Below the pieces are notes generated by a model that saw nothing but the letters and a program-made list of their open reading frames with translations, ran no database searches and had not been told where the DNA came from. A DNA stretch of 64,000 nt from Ulva prolifera (Eukaryota > Chlorophyta > Ulvophyceae > Ulvales > Ulvaceae): assembly GCA_023078555.1 (NCBI GenBank), contig CM041202.1, positions 3,034,022 through 3,098,021 on the forward strand, given 5' to 3'. Below, in pieces: positions 651 through 63,682 of this stretch (positions within the stretch are counted from its first letter, which is position 1; every line of letters begins with the position of its first letter). Both the position numbers and the translations under genes were made by a program.

Positions 651-3600
651 ATGTGGCGATTGACAACGTGCTACGACAGCGAGGGGCACCCCTTCCTGCG
701 ATCGACCAACGGGCATCAAGGCAGGCAGGTGTGGGTGTATGATGAAGACGCAGGCACGGACGCAGACAGGCAGGAAGTGGAACGCTTGCGCGAGGCTTTC
801 ACGGACACGCGACTGAAGCAGAAGCACAGCAGCGATGAACTACTACGCCTCCAGAAGATCAATAAACACCAGGTCAGCCTCTCATACATGCACATGCAAG
901 TCAACCTGCGGCATTCACTGCGGGCCTGCGAGCATGGCTCGCAGCTAGCACACAGTGGAACCATCCATGACTCCGCATCTGATCCAGGCCACTGAGCCGC
1001 CCGCACCTCCTGCATCCGGACAGACGCCCAGTGCCGAAGCAGTCAAGGGGCATCTGGAGGCAGGCATGGGGTTTCACTCCATGCTGCAGATGGACGACGG
1101 TCACTTCCCGGGTGACTATGGTGGGCCCATGTTCCTGCTGCCTGGGCTGATCATCGCATGCTACGTCACAGGCAGCCTGGACACCGTCTTCAGCCCGCAG
1201 CACAAGCACGAGATGCTGCGCTACTTCCGGAACCATCAGAACGAGGACGGCGGCTTTGGGTTGCACATCGAGGGAGCATCCACGATGTTTGGGACTGGCC
1301 TGTGGTATGCCACCTGGGTCCTCGCATGGGGCTGCCGCTGCTGGCAAGCTATGCTCAGAATCAGGCTTCTTACTTACATGGCACGGCAACAGCGTCAGCC
1401 GCCACGATGCATGTCAAGCGCAGCCGTGCTGGCGATCGTCTTGCCGCCTCTGCCTCCGCCTCACCCTGCCAGCCGCGGTCAGTGCATCTGCCATTGCCAT
1501 GATCGGCGCCACTCTGCCCTCACGCATGCATGCGCCGCAGCTGCGCCCAGCTGTGAAACCCCCCTCGCCATCGCTGCACCTCCTGGTTTCAAACAGCTGG
1601 CTACAGCCAAGGCGGCCCCGTCTCCGTACCAGGTACATGCATGCATGCACTCATGCGGTGTGAATTCGTTGGGCCGCCACCGCCTTAACGACCATGCGTG
1701 TGCAGTTACGTGTCCATGAGGCTGCTGGGTGTGGGCCCTGATGACGCAAGCACATCCCGGGCTCGGTCGTGGGTGCGTCTCTCCCGCTCACCCAGCCATC
1801 GCCACTGCCGCTGCCAGCCACAACCTGCAAGGCACTCCCACAGCCTGCGCTCCACAGCGGCGCCAGCTGCCACATCACCCCGTGTACCCCCCCCCCCCCC
1901 CCCCCCCCCTGCTTGCCCAGTCCCTCCTCATGTTCTCTCTGCAGCGTGACCCGGCAGTGGAGCGCAATCCCCAGCAAGCGCGCAGCTGCAGCTGCACGGG
2001 CGAACGAGCGGGCGACAGGCAGCTCACCGTTCCTGCAGGATCACTGGTGCCCCAGCAGCGGGCCAGCTGTTTGTGGACACGGAGGCTCCACTCCCCCGCA
2101 GCTACACGTCACGCGAAGCTGCAGCTCGGAGGGGGGTGTGCCTGCATGCAGATTCTCGCACGGGGGGACGTGACGTATATCACCTCCTGGGGCAAGTTCT
2201 GGCTTGCGGTGCTCGGGTGCTTCAGCTGGGACGGCATGAACCCGATCACGCCGGAGATGTGGCTTCTGCCGTACAGCGCGTGGACGGGCATCGGCTGGGC
2301 GCACCCCGGCCGCTACTGGTGCCACTGCCGCATGGTGTACCTCCCGATGTCGTATCTCTACGGCATCCGCGCCACGGGCACCAGCACGCCACTCGTCGCC
2401 GCTCTGCGGTGCGCCCTCCCCCCTGCTGCGCCTCCCGCCCCCCGCTGCCACTGCTACATAGTATGAAGCCGCCGCGTAGCACACAGAGCAGGCTCTTCAC
2501 TCACGGGTCCTCACGCGGACAGCCCACCCGCCGTGCTCTCGGTGTAGTATAGCTGTGTGCACTGGGAGCGTGTCCTCACACTGCGCTGTGGAGGCGGATC
2601 CTGTGGTAGCTGACACGACCGTGACCACGCGGTTGTGCACAACCCAGCCACAGGAATCACGCAGAAGCAGTCGTACAATCATGACTGAGGTCTGGCGCAG
2701 ATTGTCGGCCATCAGGGCCGCTGCATCTGCGCGCGTAATCGACGCCGCCCGCCGTAGGCGACTCTGCCGCCTCCACTGCAACTCGTGGATCTGCGCAACC
2801 GTGTGTGCATGGAACGACCCGGCCCGCGCCCACGCGCTGGGTGCAGCATCTCCGGTCCCCTGGGCGCGTGCCTGCACGCGCAATCGCACGCATGAGCGGT
2901 CCGCGCAGCATGCATGCAGGGAGGAGCTGTTTGAGCGGGACTACACGACGGTCGACTGGAACGCAGCGCGCAACCGCTGCGCGCGCGAAGACCTGTACTA
3001 CCCGCACCCCTGGCTGCAGGACGCCATCTGGTGGGTGCTCTACAAGGCTGAGAGCCTGCTGCTCGGCAGCGCGCTGCGGCGTGCTGCGCTGCGCGAGGTC
3101 ATGACCCTCGTGCACTACGAGGACGAGAACACGCGCTACATCGACATTGGGCCCGTGAACAAGGCCCTGAACCTCGTGTGCTGCTGGTTCGAGGACCGTG
3201 AAGGCGAGCCGTTCAAGAGGTGCGGCGCGCGCCGGCCGCCACGGCACCGCGGCAGCGGATCACCTTGTGGACAGACTGCTTGTCAACTCCGCCATGCACC
3301 CCGGCATGCCGTTGTATGCGTGGGGCTCTGCGTCACCCCGCAATTGCTGTGCTGGTACTGGTTGAAGGCTAGGATCTCACCATGCGTGTGGCGAGAATGG
3401 AGGGGGCCTGCATGAGCGGGCGCGGCTGCTGACGGGGACTTGAGTGGTGCCGGGCGGGCGTGGCGCTGACCAGGCCTCGATTCGTCAGGCCTACGCACAG
3501 GTGCCACAGGTGCCGATCAGGATGTCGCCAAGGTACAACCGGGTTGCCGCCTGGCAGCACACACGCGCGCTCCATCGCGCTGGCGCATCCCGGCGAGGTC

Positions 3601-6600
3601 TTGCCGGTACCAAGCTCGACCAGCGGTGTGCAGGCACCTGGCGCGCGTGGCGGACTACCTCTGGGTGGCGGAGGACGGCCTCAAGATGCAGGGCTACAAC
3701 GGCTCGCAGCTGTGGGACACCGCCTTCACGGTGCAGGCGTACGCCGCGAGCGGCCTCCTGAACGACACCGTCGCGGCAGCCCTGACGCGCGCGCACGCAT
3801 ACATCAAGAACACGCAGGCGCGGCCCTCCCCCTCCCGCCCCTCCCCGGCCCCTCTCCCCAGCAGCGGCTGCATGCGGTTGCACCGCTGACCGTGTGGCAG
3901 AGCGCTCGTGCATGGCGGCTTCGCCGTGGCCGCGATCGGTCGAAGTTGCCGGTGCAGGCCGCGGCACGTGTGGCTACAGGCGCTACAGGAGGGCCTGCGG
4001 GGGCTGATGCCGGTCAGCACCGCAGCCGTGATCGCGGCATGACCGGCACAGCCGTGCGAACCGTGTCTGAGGGGGTGCCTGCGCATGCATAGTGGCCACA
4101 CGTGCCGCCGCGGTTGCTGAACTGGATGAGTGGCTGCAGGAGCTCTGCTGCGCCTTGTTTCTGTGTACGTGTGTGTCGTAGCTGCGAGTGGCTGTGGTGC
4201 GCAAACGGCATGTGACATCGTGTCGGCGGCGGTGCAGGTGGTGCAGGAGGCCGAGCAGCCTCTGACGCGGTACTACCGCCACATCTCCCAGGGTGCTTGG
4301 CCGTTCAGCACGCGTGACCACGGCTGGCCAATCTCTGACTGCACCTCCGAGGTGTGTTCCCCTCCCTCTGCAACCCCTCTCTGCTGTGCTCCGATGCACC
4401 CATTTTTGCTGTGAGCATCGGCGCCTGCATTTGCAAGCACACTCGGACGCATGCGCACGCCTCAGCACGACTGGTTGGTGGGCGTGAGCCTGTGGGCTCG
4501 GCTTGGTAGGGGAGGGGCGTGCAGGCACCCTGTGCCCTGCCTCTCGCGATGCCAGTTTTCCGGGAGCCAAAGTTCGGGCACATGGCAATAGGCGTCCCTG
4601 CAGGCGTCCCTACTTGCCGCCAGCCAAGTGTGACGACAGTTACTTTACTTTACAGTTGGAGGCTTGTGGGACGTGTGCCTGTGGCTCCTGACACTGCACT
4701 CGAGCTGTAAATAGTCAGGCATTGAAAGCTTCCTAACGCTTTCCTCTGTTACGCATGAATGTGTGACGTAATCATGCTTATTGGCCACTGCAGTAGTCTG
4801 GTGTGGGTGTCAATGGCTGGTATGGGGCCCCAAGCAACAAGTGGTTCTGGCAGCTTGCCATGCAGTTGCACAGGCGTAGATTGTCTCTGCATGGCCGTCA
4901 TTCACTTGTTTTCGCGAATTTGCATGACAGGCTGAGCCGATGTGACACCGGGCGCGGGTTAGGGCGACCCTTCTGTGGGGCTCTTGGCATTGCTCGGACG
5001 TTAACAGCGACCTTGACGCCAATCATGCATTCGTGAAACACATCGATATTCAGATCAAGGTCAGATCTGGCTAGCGGAAGTCATATCGCGGATTCGTGGC
5101 CCTCGCTGCTGCTTGCCGCGGATGACGCTGGCCAGGCGCGCATGGTTGGTGCGGCGCTGCCACACACAGTACACGCATATCTCATATCCGATCCGATATA
5201 TCCGTAAATCCGAATTTCGCCGCCATCGATTGAGGGCGTCACGTTGCCGATTGGTGCTCAGCTGAGCCGATCTTGCACGGAGTCGCTGCATTCTGGTGTG
5301 CTGCAGCGTCAGCCAGCTCGCGACTTCAAACACCTCCAGGAGTTTTTCGACTGCGTGTGTTGGCTGAACAAATCTGTTGTACCTGAGACTTGACGATGAT
5401 CGAGCAACGAGGCCATCTCGCGCACTCTGGGCGTCCGACTCTTTGGCCACCTTCCGCTGACACCTGCCTTGACTGAGCGGTTTGGCGTGCCTGCACACAG
5501 GACTGTAACGAACCTGCATCCATGCCATGGATCCCATGGAACATTCCTCATCCGCTGCGAACCCGTGAACGCCTACGTAATCGCATTTATAATTCACACC
5601 ACTCGCGATGCATCGGTCAAGCTTGACCAAGTGGACCACAACACTTGCACCACGTTGACCTCCTAGCGCTGTCGGAGCCGCAAGCCTGGCCACGCCCCGA
5701 CTTCATGGTGTCTGCCTGTGAGCCTGGCGGAGATGCATGCCGTCGAGGTAGCCGTGCCCGCGGAGATCCGTGAGCGGCACAGGAGGTACGGCCGCAGGCA
5801 GCTGCCCGCACTAACCGAGCCTGCGAAAGCTGAGGCTGCAGTGCAAGCCGCACTTACAACCCTGCATCGCGCTGCACGCCCGCGCTGAAGCGCATTCATG
5901 ACACCTCGAGAAGCCCCAACCCGGACAATCTGCCAGGGTTGTGGGATGTCGCCAATTGTGGGCCACGTGTAAACTCCAGCCTGTGCTTACAGTTCAGCAC
6001 AGCCATTCTGCTACTGACTCCTGTAGGCAAGCTGTTTTCTCCTTGTGAGACCTGGATCCATTGACAGCAAAGGTTCATGAGGCCCTGCCCTGACACACAC
6101 ACTGCCGGCAACCACAGAGGGGAGCACAGCTATGCCACTGTCGCCAGGACTGGTGTGATTCCCGGCAGTGCTACCAGCCTTTCCCAACTTGTTTGCATGC
6201 GTAACACACACTGCTGGACACGGTGACCCCTGACAAGTGGCATGGCTCCTACATCCACCCAGACCCCACCAAGACTGCTGCCGCTGGGCCTGCCTCACCT
6301 CTCGAGACACCTCCTGTTTCACAATGTGCATGCGTGCCTGTATTTGCTTCTTCCTTGCACACCACATACAATCTGAGGTAAAAGGTTCACAGATTGAACC
6401 TACATCACATGATGATCACGTGTCCTCTTCGCACCCCATGTACACATGCCTCAGTGTCCCACAGCTCTCGCACACCAACCCCCTCCCCCTCCCCAGTACT
6501 CCGATTTCGTCCTCTACCAGGCAATGTCTCGCGCTCTCAACGTTTCAAATGACTCATTTGTGACCTGCTTCAGGGCCTCAAGGCGGCGCTGGCGCTTGCA

Positions 6601-7793
6601 GCGCTCCCGGTGGCCACCGTCGGCGAGCCCCTCCCGGAGCCCGCCCTCTGTGCCGCCGTCAACGTCATCCTCTCCTACCAGAACGCCAACGGCGGCTGGC
6701 CGACGTACGAGCTGCAGCGGTCCTTCGCCGCGATCGAGCTCCTCAACCCTGCCGAGACCTTCGGCGACATCATGGTCGACTACTCCTACGTCGAGTGCTC
6801 GTCCGCATGCATCACAGCGCTGACGGCGTTCCGCGCGCGTGTGCCGGGCCACCGCGAGGGCGAGATCGCCGCCGCGCTGCGCCGTGGCCGGGCGTGGGTG
6901 GAGGGCGCGCAGCGGCCGGACGGCTCGTGGTACGGCAGCTGGGCGGTGTGCTTCACGTACGGCTGCTGGTTCGGCGCAAAGGCGCTGCGCGCGCTGGGGC
7001 TGACGGTGGACTCGTGCGACGCGCAGCGGCGGGTCGCCGCGTTTCTCGTGCAGCGGCAGCGGCCGGACGGCGGCTGGGGGGAGTCGTATCTGTCGTGCCA
7101 GGATAAGGTGTACTCGCAGCTCTCGGGTCCGCCCCTGCTGCTCTCTTACCTGCTCCGCCGCATGCCAGTTTTCAGCCTGCCCATGCACGTATCGAGTCTT
7201 GATATGCGCTGCAAGGTCAAAGTTGGAGAGGCAGGTAGCACCGCAGGACACACACACACGCATCGATATCCGACGTATCTGCTCCTGATGACCAGGAACC
7301 TGGAAGTTGTGGCGTGGGGGTGCCTTTGCCGTGGTTGTAGCCTGGTGGCAGCACACGCTATCATGCATCCATGCATACGTACATGCGACCACCCTGCTCT
7401 GCATCGCAGCCGCGGCCGCCATGCACAGCGTGAGAGCGCCGTGCCAGTGCCCCACACACTGAGCGGCTACCCTTACCGCCGTTTTTTTTTAAATGAGGCC
7501 CCGCCACCCGCCGTGCAGGGCAGTCACACGTCGTCAACACCGGTTGGGCAATGCTCACGTTGGTCGCGACCGGCATGCATGAGGCGGACCCCGCGCCGCT
7601 GCACCGTGGCGCCGCGTTCCTCATGCGTGCGCAGCAGCGCAACGGCGACTGGCCGCAGCAGCACATCAGCGGCGTCTTCAACCGCAATTGCATGATCACC
7701 TATGCCAACTACCGCAACATCTTCCCCGTCTGGGCCCTGGGGGTGTATCGCCGTTGCGTACTGCTCGGCGAACCCTATTCTACCGGCATGTAG
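651..7793 (+). CDS. CAS1: Cycloartenol synthase (oxidosqualene cyclase)
   Basis: Cyclises 2,3-oxidosqualene to cycloartenol, the first committed step of sterol synthesis in green plants, at the ER membrane. Exons: 651-872, 988-1304, 1706-1772, 2152-2408, 2920-3219, 3634-3817, 4238-4351, 6574-7126, 7519-7793. All phases join, giving 762 residues, the usual size. Family signatures run in order: MWRL N-terminus, [49 protein letters not shown] and repeated QW-type motifs ([19 protein letters not shown]). The proton-donor Asp falls at residue 483. Residues known to favour cycloartenol over lanosterol are kept: Tyr in [11 protein letters not shown], and His477 and Ile481 in [14 protein letters not shown] replaces the common DCTAE. 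Intron 6 is best read with a GC donor at 3818. Intron 7 (4352-6573) is by far the longest. The start is the first ATG of the conserved N-terminus. Confidence 0.95.
1887..1909 (+). repeat. 23-base C homopolymer in CAS intron 3
   Basis: An uninterrupted C run lies in the intron at 1773-2151, on the sense strand of the gene. It is one of eight intronic C/G homopolymers in the window. Confidence 0.9.
3818..4237 (+). other. Probable GC-AG intron of CAS
   Basis: The reading frame and the family alignment end the upstream exon at Asn-Thr-Gln (3817) and resume at Val-Val-Gln (4238). The first intron bases are GCGCGG. No GT donor nearby keeps the frame and the expected spacing to the YRHIS motif. Confidence 0.65.
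7160..7265 (+). repeat. Dispersed repeat family 2, copy 1 (CAS intron 8)
   Basis: The core AAAGTTGGAGAGGCAGGTAG followed by GCAGGACACAC matches 18579-18610 on the same strand and, reversed, 25268-25320. A short CA run follows. A weaker fourth match may lie at 4530-4585 in CAS intron 7, sharing the block ATGCCAGTTTTC. Confidence 0.55.
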
Positions 7794-26135: not shown

Positions 26136-36889
<10,754 letters not shown>

Positions 36890-38343: not shown

Positions 38344-39225
38344 TCAGAGCTTGGCAAACCTATGCGTCCAATCAGCCGCAACTTTGTCGTGTTGGGCACG
38401 ATCGCTGAGAAACTGTTGTGCGATGGAGCCGACCAGTGCATCCTCTGCACAGGCATGCAGTCACAGTCAAGAACAGCGCCAGTTCACAACAGCAAGTATA
38501 GGACGAAGGTGATAACGGTCGGCGATGTGTATACAACACTGCAATGTTGGTCTGCTGAAACGTAGACAGATGGAAGTCTGCGTCTATGTTTTACAGGCCA
38601 AGGAACGGCTGCCTACCTGGGCGAGGTTTTGCCAGGAGGTCATAGATGGTAATGAGAACGGTATGAATTGTAAGAGCTGGACGCCACGCTCCAAGCAGGA
38701 TATCAATTCCCACAGTGCCACCCTTGCGTATGTTGCAGTGATACACTGGTGTGCGAAAGGTGACCTGCATTCCGAGCGCGTGTTGAATGGGGTGACCGCA
38801 CCTGTGCGTATGCAGCAAATGCGAAATGGGATCCATCCAGTTACAGAGGGGGCAAAATGGATTCATCACAGCTTCAATGACTGTGGAATCACCGCTGGTA
38901 CCATTGCACTCCGGATCTTACCTTGGGGGGTGCTGATGGATACTCGAAGGGCAGATCAATGTCGAGGAAGAAAAGCCCGCCTTCATACGGAGAGCCTACA
39001 CAAAGCAAAAAGGTGACAGATCATTGTATTGAATCAGTGCTTGAAAACATTTCGATGCAAGATAGCCCGGCGAGCTTGAGCTGCGGACACACCTGGCGGT
39101 CCGGTGATGGCACACGACCACGCGTAAATATTTCCATTTTTCGGCCCCGCCGATATTCCCTTCGTCAGCTTACGACTCATTTCAGCAAGTTCATTTTGTA
39201 TGCGCTTCGAGCTGGAACTCATCAC
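38344..39225 (-). CDS. UBE2E-like E2 homologue lacking the catalytic cysteine
   Basis: Ubiquitin-conjugating (UBC) fold. Exons down the minus strand: 39225-39093, 38995-38922, 38764-38617, 38444-38344. All phases join to 151 residues, the normal length of a minimal E2. Motifs in order: SSKRIQNELAEMSR (helix 1), TGPPGSPYEGGLFFLDIDLP, YPSAPPKVTFRTPVYHCNI, LGAWRPALTIHTVL, PEDALVGSIAQQFL and DWTHRFAKL at the end. The closest class is UBE2E/UBE2D; HCN in place of HPN is normal for UBE2E. Where the family has its ubiquitin-accepting Cys (Gly-x-Ile-Cys-Leu-Asp-Ile-Leu), this protein has GTVGIDIL, with Gly88 encoded by GGA at 38710-38708. So it cannot form the thioester. Open frame and intact splice sites argue against a decayed pseudogene. 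An UEV-like partner role is inferred. Confidence 0.88.
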
Positions 39226-62270: not shown

Positions 62271-63682
62271 CTATGTCAAATCGACGACACCAGCTGATGC
62301 ACTAGCTACCTGTGCCACCATACCCCCTTCCCCTGTTCCCGCCAGTGCAGCAGCTTGTACTCGTGCAGCTGCTCTTGCCCTTTTTATTGCACCGGGTGCT
62401 CCATGTGGCTGCAATGGCTGCCCTGACGTCAGATCAATTGTTCCACCCGCGCCATTACCATCGGCTGCCTTGGGCCCCATGACTGGAACACACGCGGAAA
62501 GATCCACAGGCTCAGCATGTCTCCGTCGTGGGGAGGGTTGAGATGGAGCAGCGTTCCCCTCTGAGTCTAGCCTGCTGCGCTTGCCACCCCGAGCCTCAGG
62601 TATGCTGCCTGCAGCATTGGGTGCCCGCGTTCCATTGAGCGCTGCAACTGCAGCATCTAGGCTAGCCTTGGTCTGCAGCCCAGGTAAAAGATGGTTGAAA
62701 ATCTTCAGATTTGATCTGTGACCTGATCTGGCACCCCATGCCGCAGATTTTTTGGCGAGGTCCTTGCGCTGTGCCACTGACATGTAAACCATGCCCTGTG
62801 CAGGCGAGTCCTCGTCTGTGAAGAATGAGATGAAGGAGAGCAGCAGAGTGGTCAGCGTGTAGGCTGGAGACCAGGTCTCAGGATGGAATGATGAAAATGA
62901 TGTGCAGATCTTTGCACCGACTTGGAACCGCCCGTTCGGTGTGAGCATCAAGAAGTCTGGTGGGCTATATGGATAGTCTTGTGGGAGTTGGATCTGCATG
63001 CACGCTCGCACATTGTTTTAAAAGGACAATTGATGTGTACAATCAGCACAGTTCATGCCCAGTGGTGGCTCGGCACAGGCCAGCTAGGCTTCTTCACTGC
63101 TGTTGCTGAAATAGAATGCAGCGGATCATTGCTTTGATTTGACATACATGCACATAATGATGTGAACAATACCTTCAGCACATAAACTCCTCCAGCAAAG
63201 GATGTATCTTCTGGCCCCGCGATGACAAAGTGCAAGCTGTGCATGTCAGAGTCCTTGTAGGCCATGTCGATGACACCGGGAGGGGGATTCTCTTGTATCA
63301 TCTGCAAGCCCGCTGAACCTCATGGACAAGCATGTGCTGATGCTCTTTGTCTACAAATGGAGCACCGCAGCGTCACCAAACTCCAATAGCACTGGAACGC
63401 TTGAGAATCACCTATTTTGCATCATGAACTGCATCATCACATCGGGCAAGCGGCGGAGCATCGGCCCGCGCGTATCGTAAGGTGACGATGCATCGAATTG
63501 CTGGGGCTCGAGAGAGTGCAGTGAACGCGAAAGACAAGGCAGCCACAGCTACAAAATGGTTGCAAGTGAAGCTTGCAAGGGACCCGGTGCACGCATTTGC
63601 GCTCTGGACAGCAGCATGAACAACGCACCTGCACCTCCTTAGCGAGCCGCGCGGTCGCCTTGCCTTTGGACTTTGCAGACAT
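62271..63682 (-). CDS. UBE2J-type ubiquitin-conjugating enzyme with SIM-like tail
   Basis: Exons down the minus strand: 63682-63629, 63301-63173, 62993-62271, all phase 0, 301 residues. The UBC domain covers about residues 10-150: RLAKEVQMIQENPPPG, FVIAGPEDTSFAGGVYVLK, DYPYSPPDFLMLTPNGRFQ, and the J-class active site KICTSFSSFHPETWSPAY with Cys91 in place. UBE2J/Ubc6 enzymes usually end in a membrane anchor and act in ER-associated degradation. Here no hydrophobic C-terminal segment exists. Instead the tail has a basic stretch (GGKRSRLD), TIDLT at residues 246-250, and ends in VVDLT at 297-301. Both fit the SUMO-interacting-motif pattern. A nuclear or cytosolic, SUMO-linked role is inferred. 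An ORF between exons 1 and 2 was left out because the two exons join directly into the expected helix 1. Confidence 0.9.

What the first reader, a model, noticed from the sequence alone, without database searches (positions are those of the whole stretch)
38344..39225. An intact E2 fold with glycine at the catalytic-cysteine position
Four exons join perfectly into a normal-length UBE2E/UBE2D-like protein, but the thioester Cys is Gly88 (GTVGIDIL for the usual GxICLDIL). Everything else typical of an active E2 fold is kept, including the HCN motif and the C-terminal helix. Known cysteine-less E2s (UEV proteins such as MMS2 and TSG101) belong to other branches, so a pseudo-E2 derived from the UBE2E branch would be a separate invention, perhaps a non-catalytic partner or an inhibitor of E3 or E2 enzymes.
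Basis: partly seen in the sequence, partly recalled or inferred. Interest (0 to 1): 0.8.

Follow-up and report, generated by a model that had tools for sequence, protein, structure and literature searches.

The report
Dead ubiquitin E2 in green seaweed
A green alga related to sea lettuce carries an intact but apparently catalytically dead ubiquitin-conjugating enzyme, the only copy of that enzyme branch found in its genome, which seems to have lost its active site separately from COP10, the dead version of the same enzyme that flowering plants use in light signalling.

Summary
Confirmed. Four GT-AG exons on the minus strand (39222-38344) encode a 150-aa E2 with Gly87 (GGA) at the catalytic-cysteine position. 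It is not an error: the Ulva mutabilis orthologue (75% identical) also has Gly. But mosses, Ginkgo, Bryopsis and other green algae keep Cys; Ginkgo is sister to angiosperm COP10 (99/97); both trees need two losses, and no bootstrap tree of 200 had one. An AU test does not exclude one loss (p 0.23). No Cys-bearing UBE2E was found in the alga; DET1 and DDB1 are there, both divergent. The RING-docking Phe (Ser64), the S of S-P-A (Arg96) and gate residues are also changed; angiosperm COP10 keeps the first two. Best reading: a non-catalytic DET1-complex subunit, COP10-like in function, probably of independent origin and without RING docking. The DET1 partnership is inferred, not shown.

The parts
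39093..39222 (-). Exon 1: start codon, N-terminal helix, to GPP|G
   Evidence: this stretch is hit at 98% identity by the spliced protein; GT donor
38922..38995 (-). Exon 2: SPYEGG...PPK; holds Ser64 at the RING-docking Phe position
   Evidence: AG acceptor and GT donor
38617..38764 (-). Exon 3: HCN motif, Gly87, R-P-A loop
   Evidence: AG acceptor and GT donor
38344..38444 (-). Exon 4: C-terminal helices and TGA stop
   Evidence: 94% identity stretch; AG acceptor
38708..38710 (-). GGA codon: Gly87 in place of the catalytic Cys
   Evidence: Gly also in U. mutabilis P0001
38934..38936 (-). Ser64 codon, in place of the RING-docking Phe (UBE2D F62)
   Evidence: F in 28 of 28 Cys-bearing UBE2E rows and 18 of 18 COP10 rows, S in both Ulva-type rows
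38681..38683 (-). Arg96 codon, in place of the Ser of the S-P-A E3-binding motif
   Evidence: S in 28 of 28 and 18 of 18 rows, R in both Ulva-type rows

Best explanation
The gene encodes the only member of the UBE2E/COP10 branch of E2s that was found in this alga, and it has lost the catalytic residue. Shown here: intact gene, Gly in two Ulva-type algae, UBE2E-branch sequence, no Cys-bearing sister gene found, DET1 and DDB1 genes present. Inferred from trees and taxon sampling: the Cys was lost in the Ulva lineage separately from the loss in flowering-plant COP10. Inferred from homology: like animal UBE2E1-3 and plant COP10, it is held by DET1 in the DDB1-DET1 (CUL4) ligase and acts as a non-catalytic structural subunit that steadies DET1, while ubiquitin transfer is done by other E2s such as the alga's intact UBE2D. 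Because the RING-docking Phe and the S of S-P-A are gone too, it probably no longer docks RING proteins such as COP1.
For: Best PDB sequence matches are UBE2E1-3 (172.5-175.7 bits), ahead of UBE2D-type entries (at most 143.6 bits); it has the UBE2E-type HCN motif. U. mutabilis P0001 is 75% identical, same length, Gly. Selection: 38 differences between the two with no stop or indel (simulated neutral P 0.009 or less for 0.05 or more indels per substitution) and more conservative than neutral (mean BLOSUM62 0.21 against -0.64; 0 of 2000 runs). Cys kept in Bryopsis, Chlamydomonas, Volvox, Coccomyxa, Monoraphidium, Bathycoccus, mosses and Ginkgo; both trees need two losses, and none of 200 bootstrap trees had one. 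A Cys-bearing UBE2E query found the alga's UBE2D, UBC13 and other E2 genes and this locus, but no Cys-bearing UBE2E (UBE2D and UBC13 named). DET1 profile over cut-off in two open stretches; DDB1 by PDB match. Human DET1 binds UBE2E1-3 but not UBE2D3, its 'claw' holds the backside of UBE2E2, and COP1 makes no canonical RING-E2 contact with UBE2E2 (PMC12808801: section 8 and passages). Arabidopsis COP10 is in the DDB1-DET1-DDA1 complex and enhances true E2s (PMC6761389 passages).
Against: No binding or expression data. The AU test does not reject one Cys-less clade (p 0.226), Ulva with COP10 and Ginkgo (p 0.453), Ulva with the lone UBE2D row (p 0.385) or Ulva inside chlorophytes (p 0.281): 149 columns and a stem of 1.06-1.16 changes per site decide little. 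Its place moves: beside Monoraphidium in a group with a long-branched Blastocladiella (fungal) row, unresolved on the moss/COP10 side. Of five UBE2E2 residues that contact human DET1, R88 is Ser36, R126 is Pro74 and T201 is Lys149; only R124 is kept (Arg72), and T68 is Ser16. R88 is Val in 21 of 28 Cys-bearing rows too. The differences between the two Ulva-type proteins do not avoid UBE2E-invariant columns (14 seen, 16.7 expected, P 0.20). The human-complex authors propose that UBE2E2 starts ubiquitination with COP1 (PMC12808801), that is, a catalytic role for this position. DDA1 was not found, in a search whose controls were silent.
Confidence: 0.55

Rival explanations
1. A free-standing E2 variant that binds other E2s or ubiquitin (as MMS2 does for UBC13) and tunes them, without a DET1 role.
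For: COP10 enhances true E2s in vitro (PMC6761389 passage). DET1-contact positions R88, R126 and T201 are changed.
Against: The sequence is of the UBE2E branch, and a separate MMS2/UEV1-type gene exists at G000:C2:2668404 (UEV1/UEV2 are its best PDB matches). Human DET1 picks UBE2E, not UBE2D3 (PMC12808801).
Confidence: 0.2
2. True COP10: one Cys loss shared with flowering plants, by common descent or by gene transfer from an angiosperm.
For: AU test does not reject it (p 0.226). Altered invariant positions overlap with those altered in COP10: 6 of 9 counting either Ulva-type row (P 0.02), but 4 of 9 counting both (P 0.07); post hoc.
Against: Ginkgo (Cys) is sister to angiosperm COP10 at 99/97 and 99/96; mosses and other chlorophytes keep Cys; none of 200 bootstrap trees had one loss. 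At 26 positions where COP10 and UBE2E majorities differ, the window protein matches COP10 at 2 and UBE2E at 11; the U. mutabilis protein at 6 and 8.
Confidence: 0.1
3. A competitor that sequesters RING E3s by docking without ubiquitin.
For: K6, R7, E11, P63, W95, P97 and A98 of the E3-binding surface are kept.
Against: The F62 equivalent is Ser, K63 Ala and S94 Arg in both rows. UbcH5a does not tolerate even Met at F62, and E2s lacking S-P-A are not CHIP partners (PMC2396629 passages).
Confidence: 0.08
4. A decaying pseudogene.
For: Long branch; differences do not avoid UBE2E-invariant columns.
Against: Frame, stop and six splice dinucleotides intact; no indel or stop over 25% divergence between two species; conservative changes.
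Confidence: 0.04
5. Another residue carries ubiquitin, or the Gly is an assembly error.
For: Cys37 and Cys78 exist.
Against: Cys78 is the ordinary HCN Cys of 28 of 28 Cys-bearing UBE2E rows; Gly recurs in another species and needs two base changes.
Confidence: 0.03

Closest known systems
COP10 (CONSTITUTIVE PHOTOMORPHOGENIC 10) of flowering plants
   Same: UBE2E-branch E2 fold, HCN motif, catalytic Cys replaced (Ser, Asn, Gly and others; Gly in 9 of 120 hits), changed gate positions 114, 116 and 119; the organism has DET1 and DDB1.
   Different: The COP10-query hits keep the RING-docking Phe (120 of 120) and the S-P-A serine (119 of 120); the Ulva protein has lost both. It lacks an N-terminal extension and most COP10-derived residues. 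Trees place the Cys loss separately, AU test undecided.
UBE2E1-3 and green-algal UBE2E
   Same: Best PDB sequence match; VGSIA and HCN signatures; 52.7-58.0% identical to five green-algal rows.
   Different: No catalytic Cys; 21 of 66 UBE2E-invariant positions altered in one or both Ulva-type rows.
UEV proteins MMS2/UEV1 and TSG101
   Same: E2 fold without the Cys (recalled).
   Different: Other E2 branches; the alga has a separate MMS2/UEV1-type locus. TSG101 was not compared.

Membership tests
UBC fold (Pfam UQ_con) | Profile match over the whole domain | tested here: met
UBE2E branch | Closer to UBE2E than to UBE2D; HCN motif | tested here: met
   172.5-175.7 against at most 143.6 bits; Cys78 as in 28 of 28 UBE2E rows, Pro in the alga's UBE2D. 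The AU test with one UBE2D row is undecided (p 0.385)
Active E2 | Catalytic Cys | tested here: not met
   Gly87
COP10 by descent | Same Cys-less clade as angiosperm COP10 | tested here: inconclusive
   Not recovered in two trees, but AU p 0.226
COP10 by function | Stable complex with DET1, DDB1 and DDA1 | not testable with these tools
   DET1 and DDB1 genes present; DDA1 not found, controls silent
COP10 by function | RING-docking surface (F62, S-P-A) as kept in COP10 | tested here: not met
   Ser64 and Arg96
MMS2/UEV1 | Sequence of the UEV branch | tested here: not met
   Best matches are UBE2E; the alga's MMS2/UEV1-type gene is another locus. UBC13 pairing was not tested

The most novel reading that the evidence does not exclude
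The DET1-bound E2 of the UBE2E branch has been turned into a dead scaffold at least twice, once on the way to flowering plants and once in Ulva-type green seaweeds. In the seaweed the E3 face was dismantled as well, so this position in the DET1 ligase needs the E2 body but neither its catalysis nor its RING contact.
Probability: 0.5. Interest if true: 0.7.

Novelty: new variant of a known kind. Interest (0 to 1): 0.57.

Why it matters
Why plants use a dead E2 (COP10) where animals use live UBE2E in the DET1 ligase is open. A second, probably independent loss, together with mosses and Ginkgo that still have the Cys, gives a natural comparison: which surfaces stay when catalysis goes tells what the complex really needs. 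In this sampling it also dates the COP10 Cys loss to after the split from Ginkgo.

Tried and rejected
Base-call or assembly error: rejected, Gly recurs in U. mutabilis. Alternative exon restoring Cys: a motif search of 14 kb on both strands found none. Near-identical duplicate of the locus: DNA search found only itself. MMS2 type: rejected by sequence match. Viral contigs: 11 pattern matches, none a relative. dN/dS: not possible, no contig is listed for P0001; neutral simulation used instead. DDA1: no match, not evidence of absence. COP1 was not sought. First naming of DDB1: I had taken the 213-bit hit at C6:1594791 for DDB1; a check shows it is splicing factor SF3B3, and the DDB1 gene is the weaker one at C5:4133961-4136030 (49.4 bits to DDB1). 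AlphaFold of the U. mutabilis orthologue: mean pLDDT 83.7, under 50 at residues 84-86; a Cys-bearing Monoraphidium control 86.8; residues 81-90 average 52 against 69: a weak hint of a looser active-site loop, not used as proof. Rows: the tree used 49 rows (47 chosen by me from 329 proteins held, the window protein and one outgroup); one search used 97 rows, after 17 of 102 candidates were left out beforehand by my skip list (fragments, fusions, odd inserts). P0304 (Trp) is a UBE2D isoform with a repeated segment that also has a normal Cys motif, not a pseudo-E2. Promoter, tRNA and Rfam scans gave nothing.

Full report
WHAT IS THERE. The window lies in an 88.9-Mb, 44-contig genome (G000:C7:3034022-3098021). 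On the minus strand four exons with intact GT-AG borders join to a 150-aa protein that matches the E2 profile almost end to end. The catalytic position is Gly87 (GGA). The best protein match is a U. mutabilis gene model, 75% identical over its full length, of the same length and also with Gly. The source is therefore an Ulva-like alga; the species was not determined. U. mutabilis is in Ulvophyceae, Ulvales.

IS IT A REAL GENE. In 2000 neutral simulations from the window CDS, 17.8% reached 38 amino-acid differences without a stop; with 0.05 to 0.2 indels per substitution the chance of neither stop nor indel is 0.009 to 0.000002. The 38 observed differences are far more conservative than neutral (0 of 2000 runs as high). 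So the protein is probably under selection, although its differences do not avoid positions invariant in Cys-bearing UBE2E (14 against 16.7 expected, P 0.20). That fits a protein that keeps its fold but is freed from catalysis; there is no expression evidence.

WHICH BRANCH. PDB sequence matches put UBE2E1-3 first, about 30 bits above UBE2D-type entries. The HCN motif is the UBE2E form (28 of 28 UBE2E rows; the alga's own UBE2D has HPN). With a Cys-bearing UBE2E as query, the own genome gave a UBE2D gene (named), a UBC13 gene, other E2s and this locus, but no Cys-bearing UBE2E. An MMS2/UEV1-type gene is separate.

COP10. In the 120 listed hits of a Typha COP10 query (6146 in all) the Cys column reads S 73, N 19, G 9, W 6, I 5, H 4, R 2, Y 1, C 1. 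The organisms named in that list are flowering plants as far as I know them; some hits are unnamed. The one C is P0220, an unnamed EukProt transcript that falls with mosses in the trees. In 122 rows of the third set (the 120 listed hits plus the window protein and Typha COP10) the column reads C 118, G 2 (the two Ulva-type rows), N 1 (Typha) and W 1 (a UBE2D isoform artefact). Cys-bearing rows include Sphagnum, Physcomitrium, Bryopsis (an ulvophyte), Chlamydomonas, Volvox, Coccomyxa, Botryococcus, Trebouxia, Monoraphidium, Ostreococcus, Bathycoccus, and P0285, whose gene name has the form that I recall for Ginkgo. Both sets are capped lists, so rarer states may be missed.

ONE LOSS OR TWO. With the Cys column removed, Ginkgo is sister to angiosperm COP10 (99/97; 99/96). 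Both trees need two changes of the Cys state; the starred branches force two, and none of 200 bootstrap trees had one. Against this, the AU test rejects none of four groupings tried: one Cys-less clade 0.226, COP10 plus Ginkgo plus Ulva 0.453, Ulva with UBE2D 0.385, Ulva inside chlorophytes 0.281. The Ulva branch is long and unstable: it sits by Monoraphidium in a group with Bathycoccus and a long-branched Blastocladiella row, in an unresolved set with mosses, Galdieria and COP10. At 26 positions where COP10 and UBE2E majorities differ, the window protein has the COP10 state at 2, the UBE2E state at 11 and neither at 13; for U. mutabilis 6, 8 and 12. I hold independent loss at about 75%, resting mostly on the Cys-bearing Ginkgo, mosses and other green algae.

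WHAT CHANGED. The two Ulva-type proteins share 24 states found in none of 28 Cys-bearing rows (one is the extra last residue). They include the RING-docking Phe to Ser64, Lys to Ala65, S of S-P-A to Arg96, Lys to Thr103, gate Asn to Arg116 and Pro to Ala120. In UbcH5a, F62 sits in the U-box pocket and even Met there is not tolerated, and E2s without S-P-A are not CHIP partners (PMC2396629, passages). The gate and closed-state roles of positions 103-120 are recalled. The COP10-query hits keep Phe (120 of 120) and the serine (119 of 120), in line with reported binding of COP10 to the COP1 RING (PMC8024647, passages). Of the UBE2E2 residues that contact human DET1 (T68, R88, R124, R126, T201; PMC12808801 section 8) the Ulva protein has S, S, R, P, K, so the interface is not simply conserved; R88 is also absent from most Cys-bearing rows and from all 18 COP10 rows in that set.

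MECHANISM. In the human complex DET1 holds the UBE2E2 backside, UBE2E alone is not enough to drive COP1 substrates, UBE2D3 builds chains, and COP1 makes no canonical RING contact with UBE2E2; the authors do propose that UBE2E2 starts ubiquitination (PMC12808801, passages and section 8). COP10 sits with DDB1, DET1 and DDA1 (PMC6761389, passages), and DET1-DDB1-CUL4 represses photoprotection genes in Chlamydomonas (PMC12445801, passages). The alga has DET1 (two open stretches over the Pfam cut-off, 48 and 28 bits) and DDB1 (C5:4133961-4136030, best PDB matches DDB1 at 49.4 bits), both divergent. The simplest reading is that the seaweed's DET1-bound E2 became a scaffold. The DET1 step is inference.

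LITERATURE. Searches for COP10 with green algae, UBE2E, chlorophyte, Ulva, Physcomitrella and gymnosperm terms (listings) showed no title or abstract start that describes a cysteine-less COP10 or UBE2E in an alga, or an angiosperm-only Cys loss. Most listed papers were not opened and most subscription papers are not held. The Ulva compressa genome paper has no mention of COP1, DET1 or ubiquitin in its main text (PMC9266709, term search). The key COP10 papers (Suzuki 2002, Yanagawa 2004, Lau and Deng 2009) were seen only as citations.

Noticed in passing
P0285, P0246, P0262: COP10-type proteins of Ginkgo (by gene-name form) and of two mosses keep the catalytic Cys, so the Cys-less state called typical of plant COP10 looks angiosperm-specific in this sampling.
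   Followed up: partly
window 62274-63017, minus strand: Exon of a second E2 (UBC6/UBE2J-like by eye, Cys kept) about 24 kb from the pseudo-E2.
   Followed up: partly
P0076 (unnamed protein of 176 aa on a 1242-base contig): UBE2E-like protein with Trp at the Cys position; P0053, similar by eye, has Cys. May be another pseudo-E2 or an error.
   Followed up: no
window 29355-33984, plus strand: SNF2 helicase, helicase C and DUF1087 matches: a CHD-type chromatin remodeller.
   Followed up: no
window 1720-7692, plus strand: Squalene-hopene-cyclase-type exons, probably an oxidosqualene cyclase.
   Followed up: no
L049 (G000:C6:4254000-4262500) and L044 (G000:C5:4135563-4136030): The alga's DET1 (48 and 28 bits) and DDB1 (49 bits) are only weakly similar to their families, whereas its SF3B3 (297 bits) and UBC13 (258 bits) are not; DET1, DDB1 and the E2 may have diverged together.
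   Followed up: no
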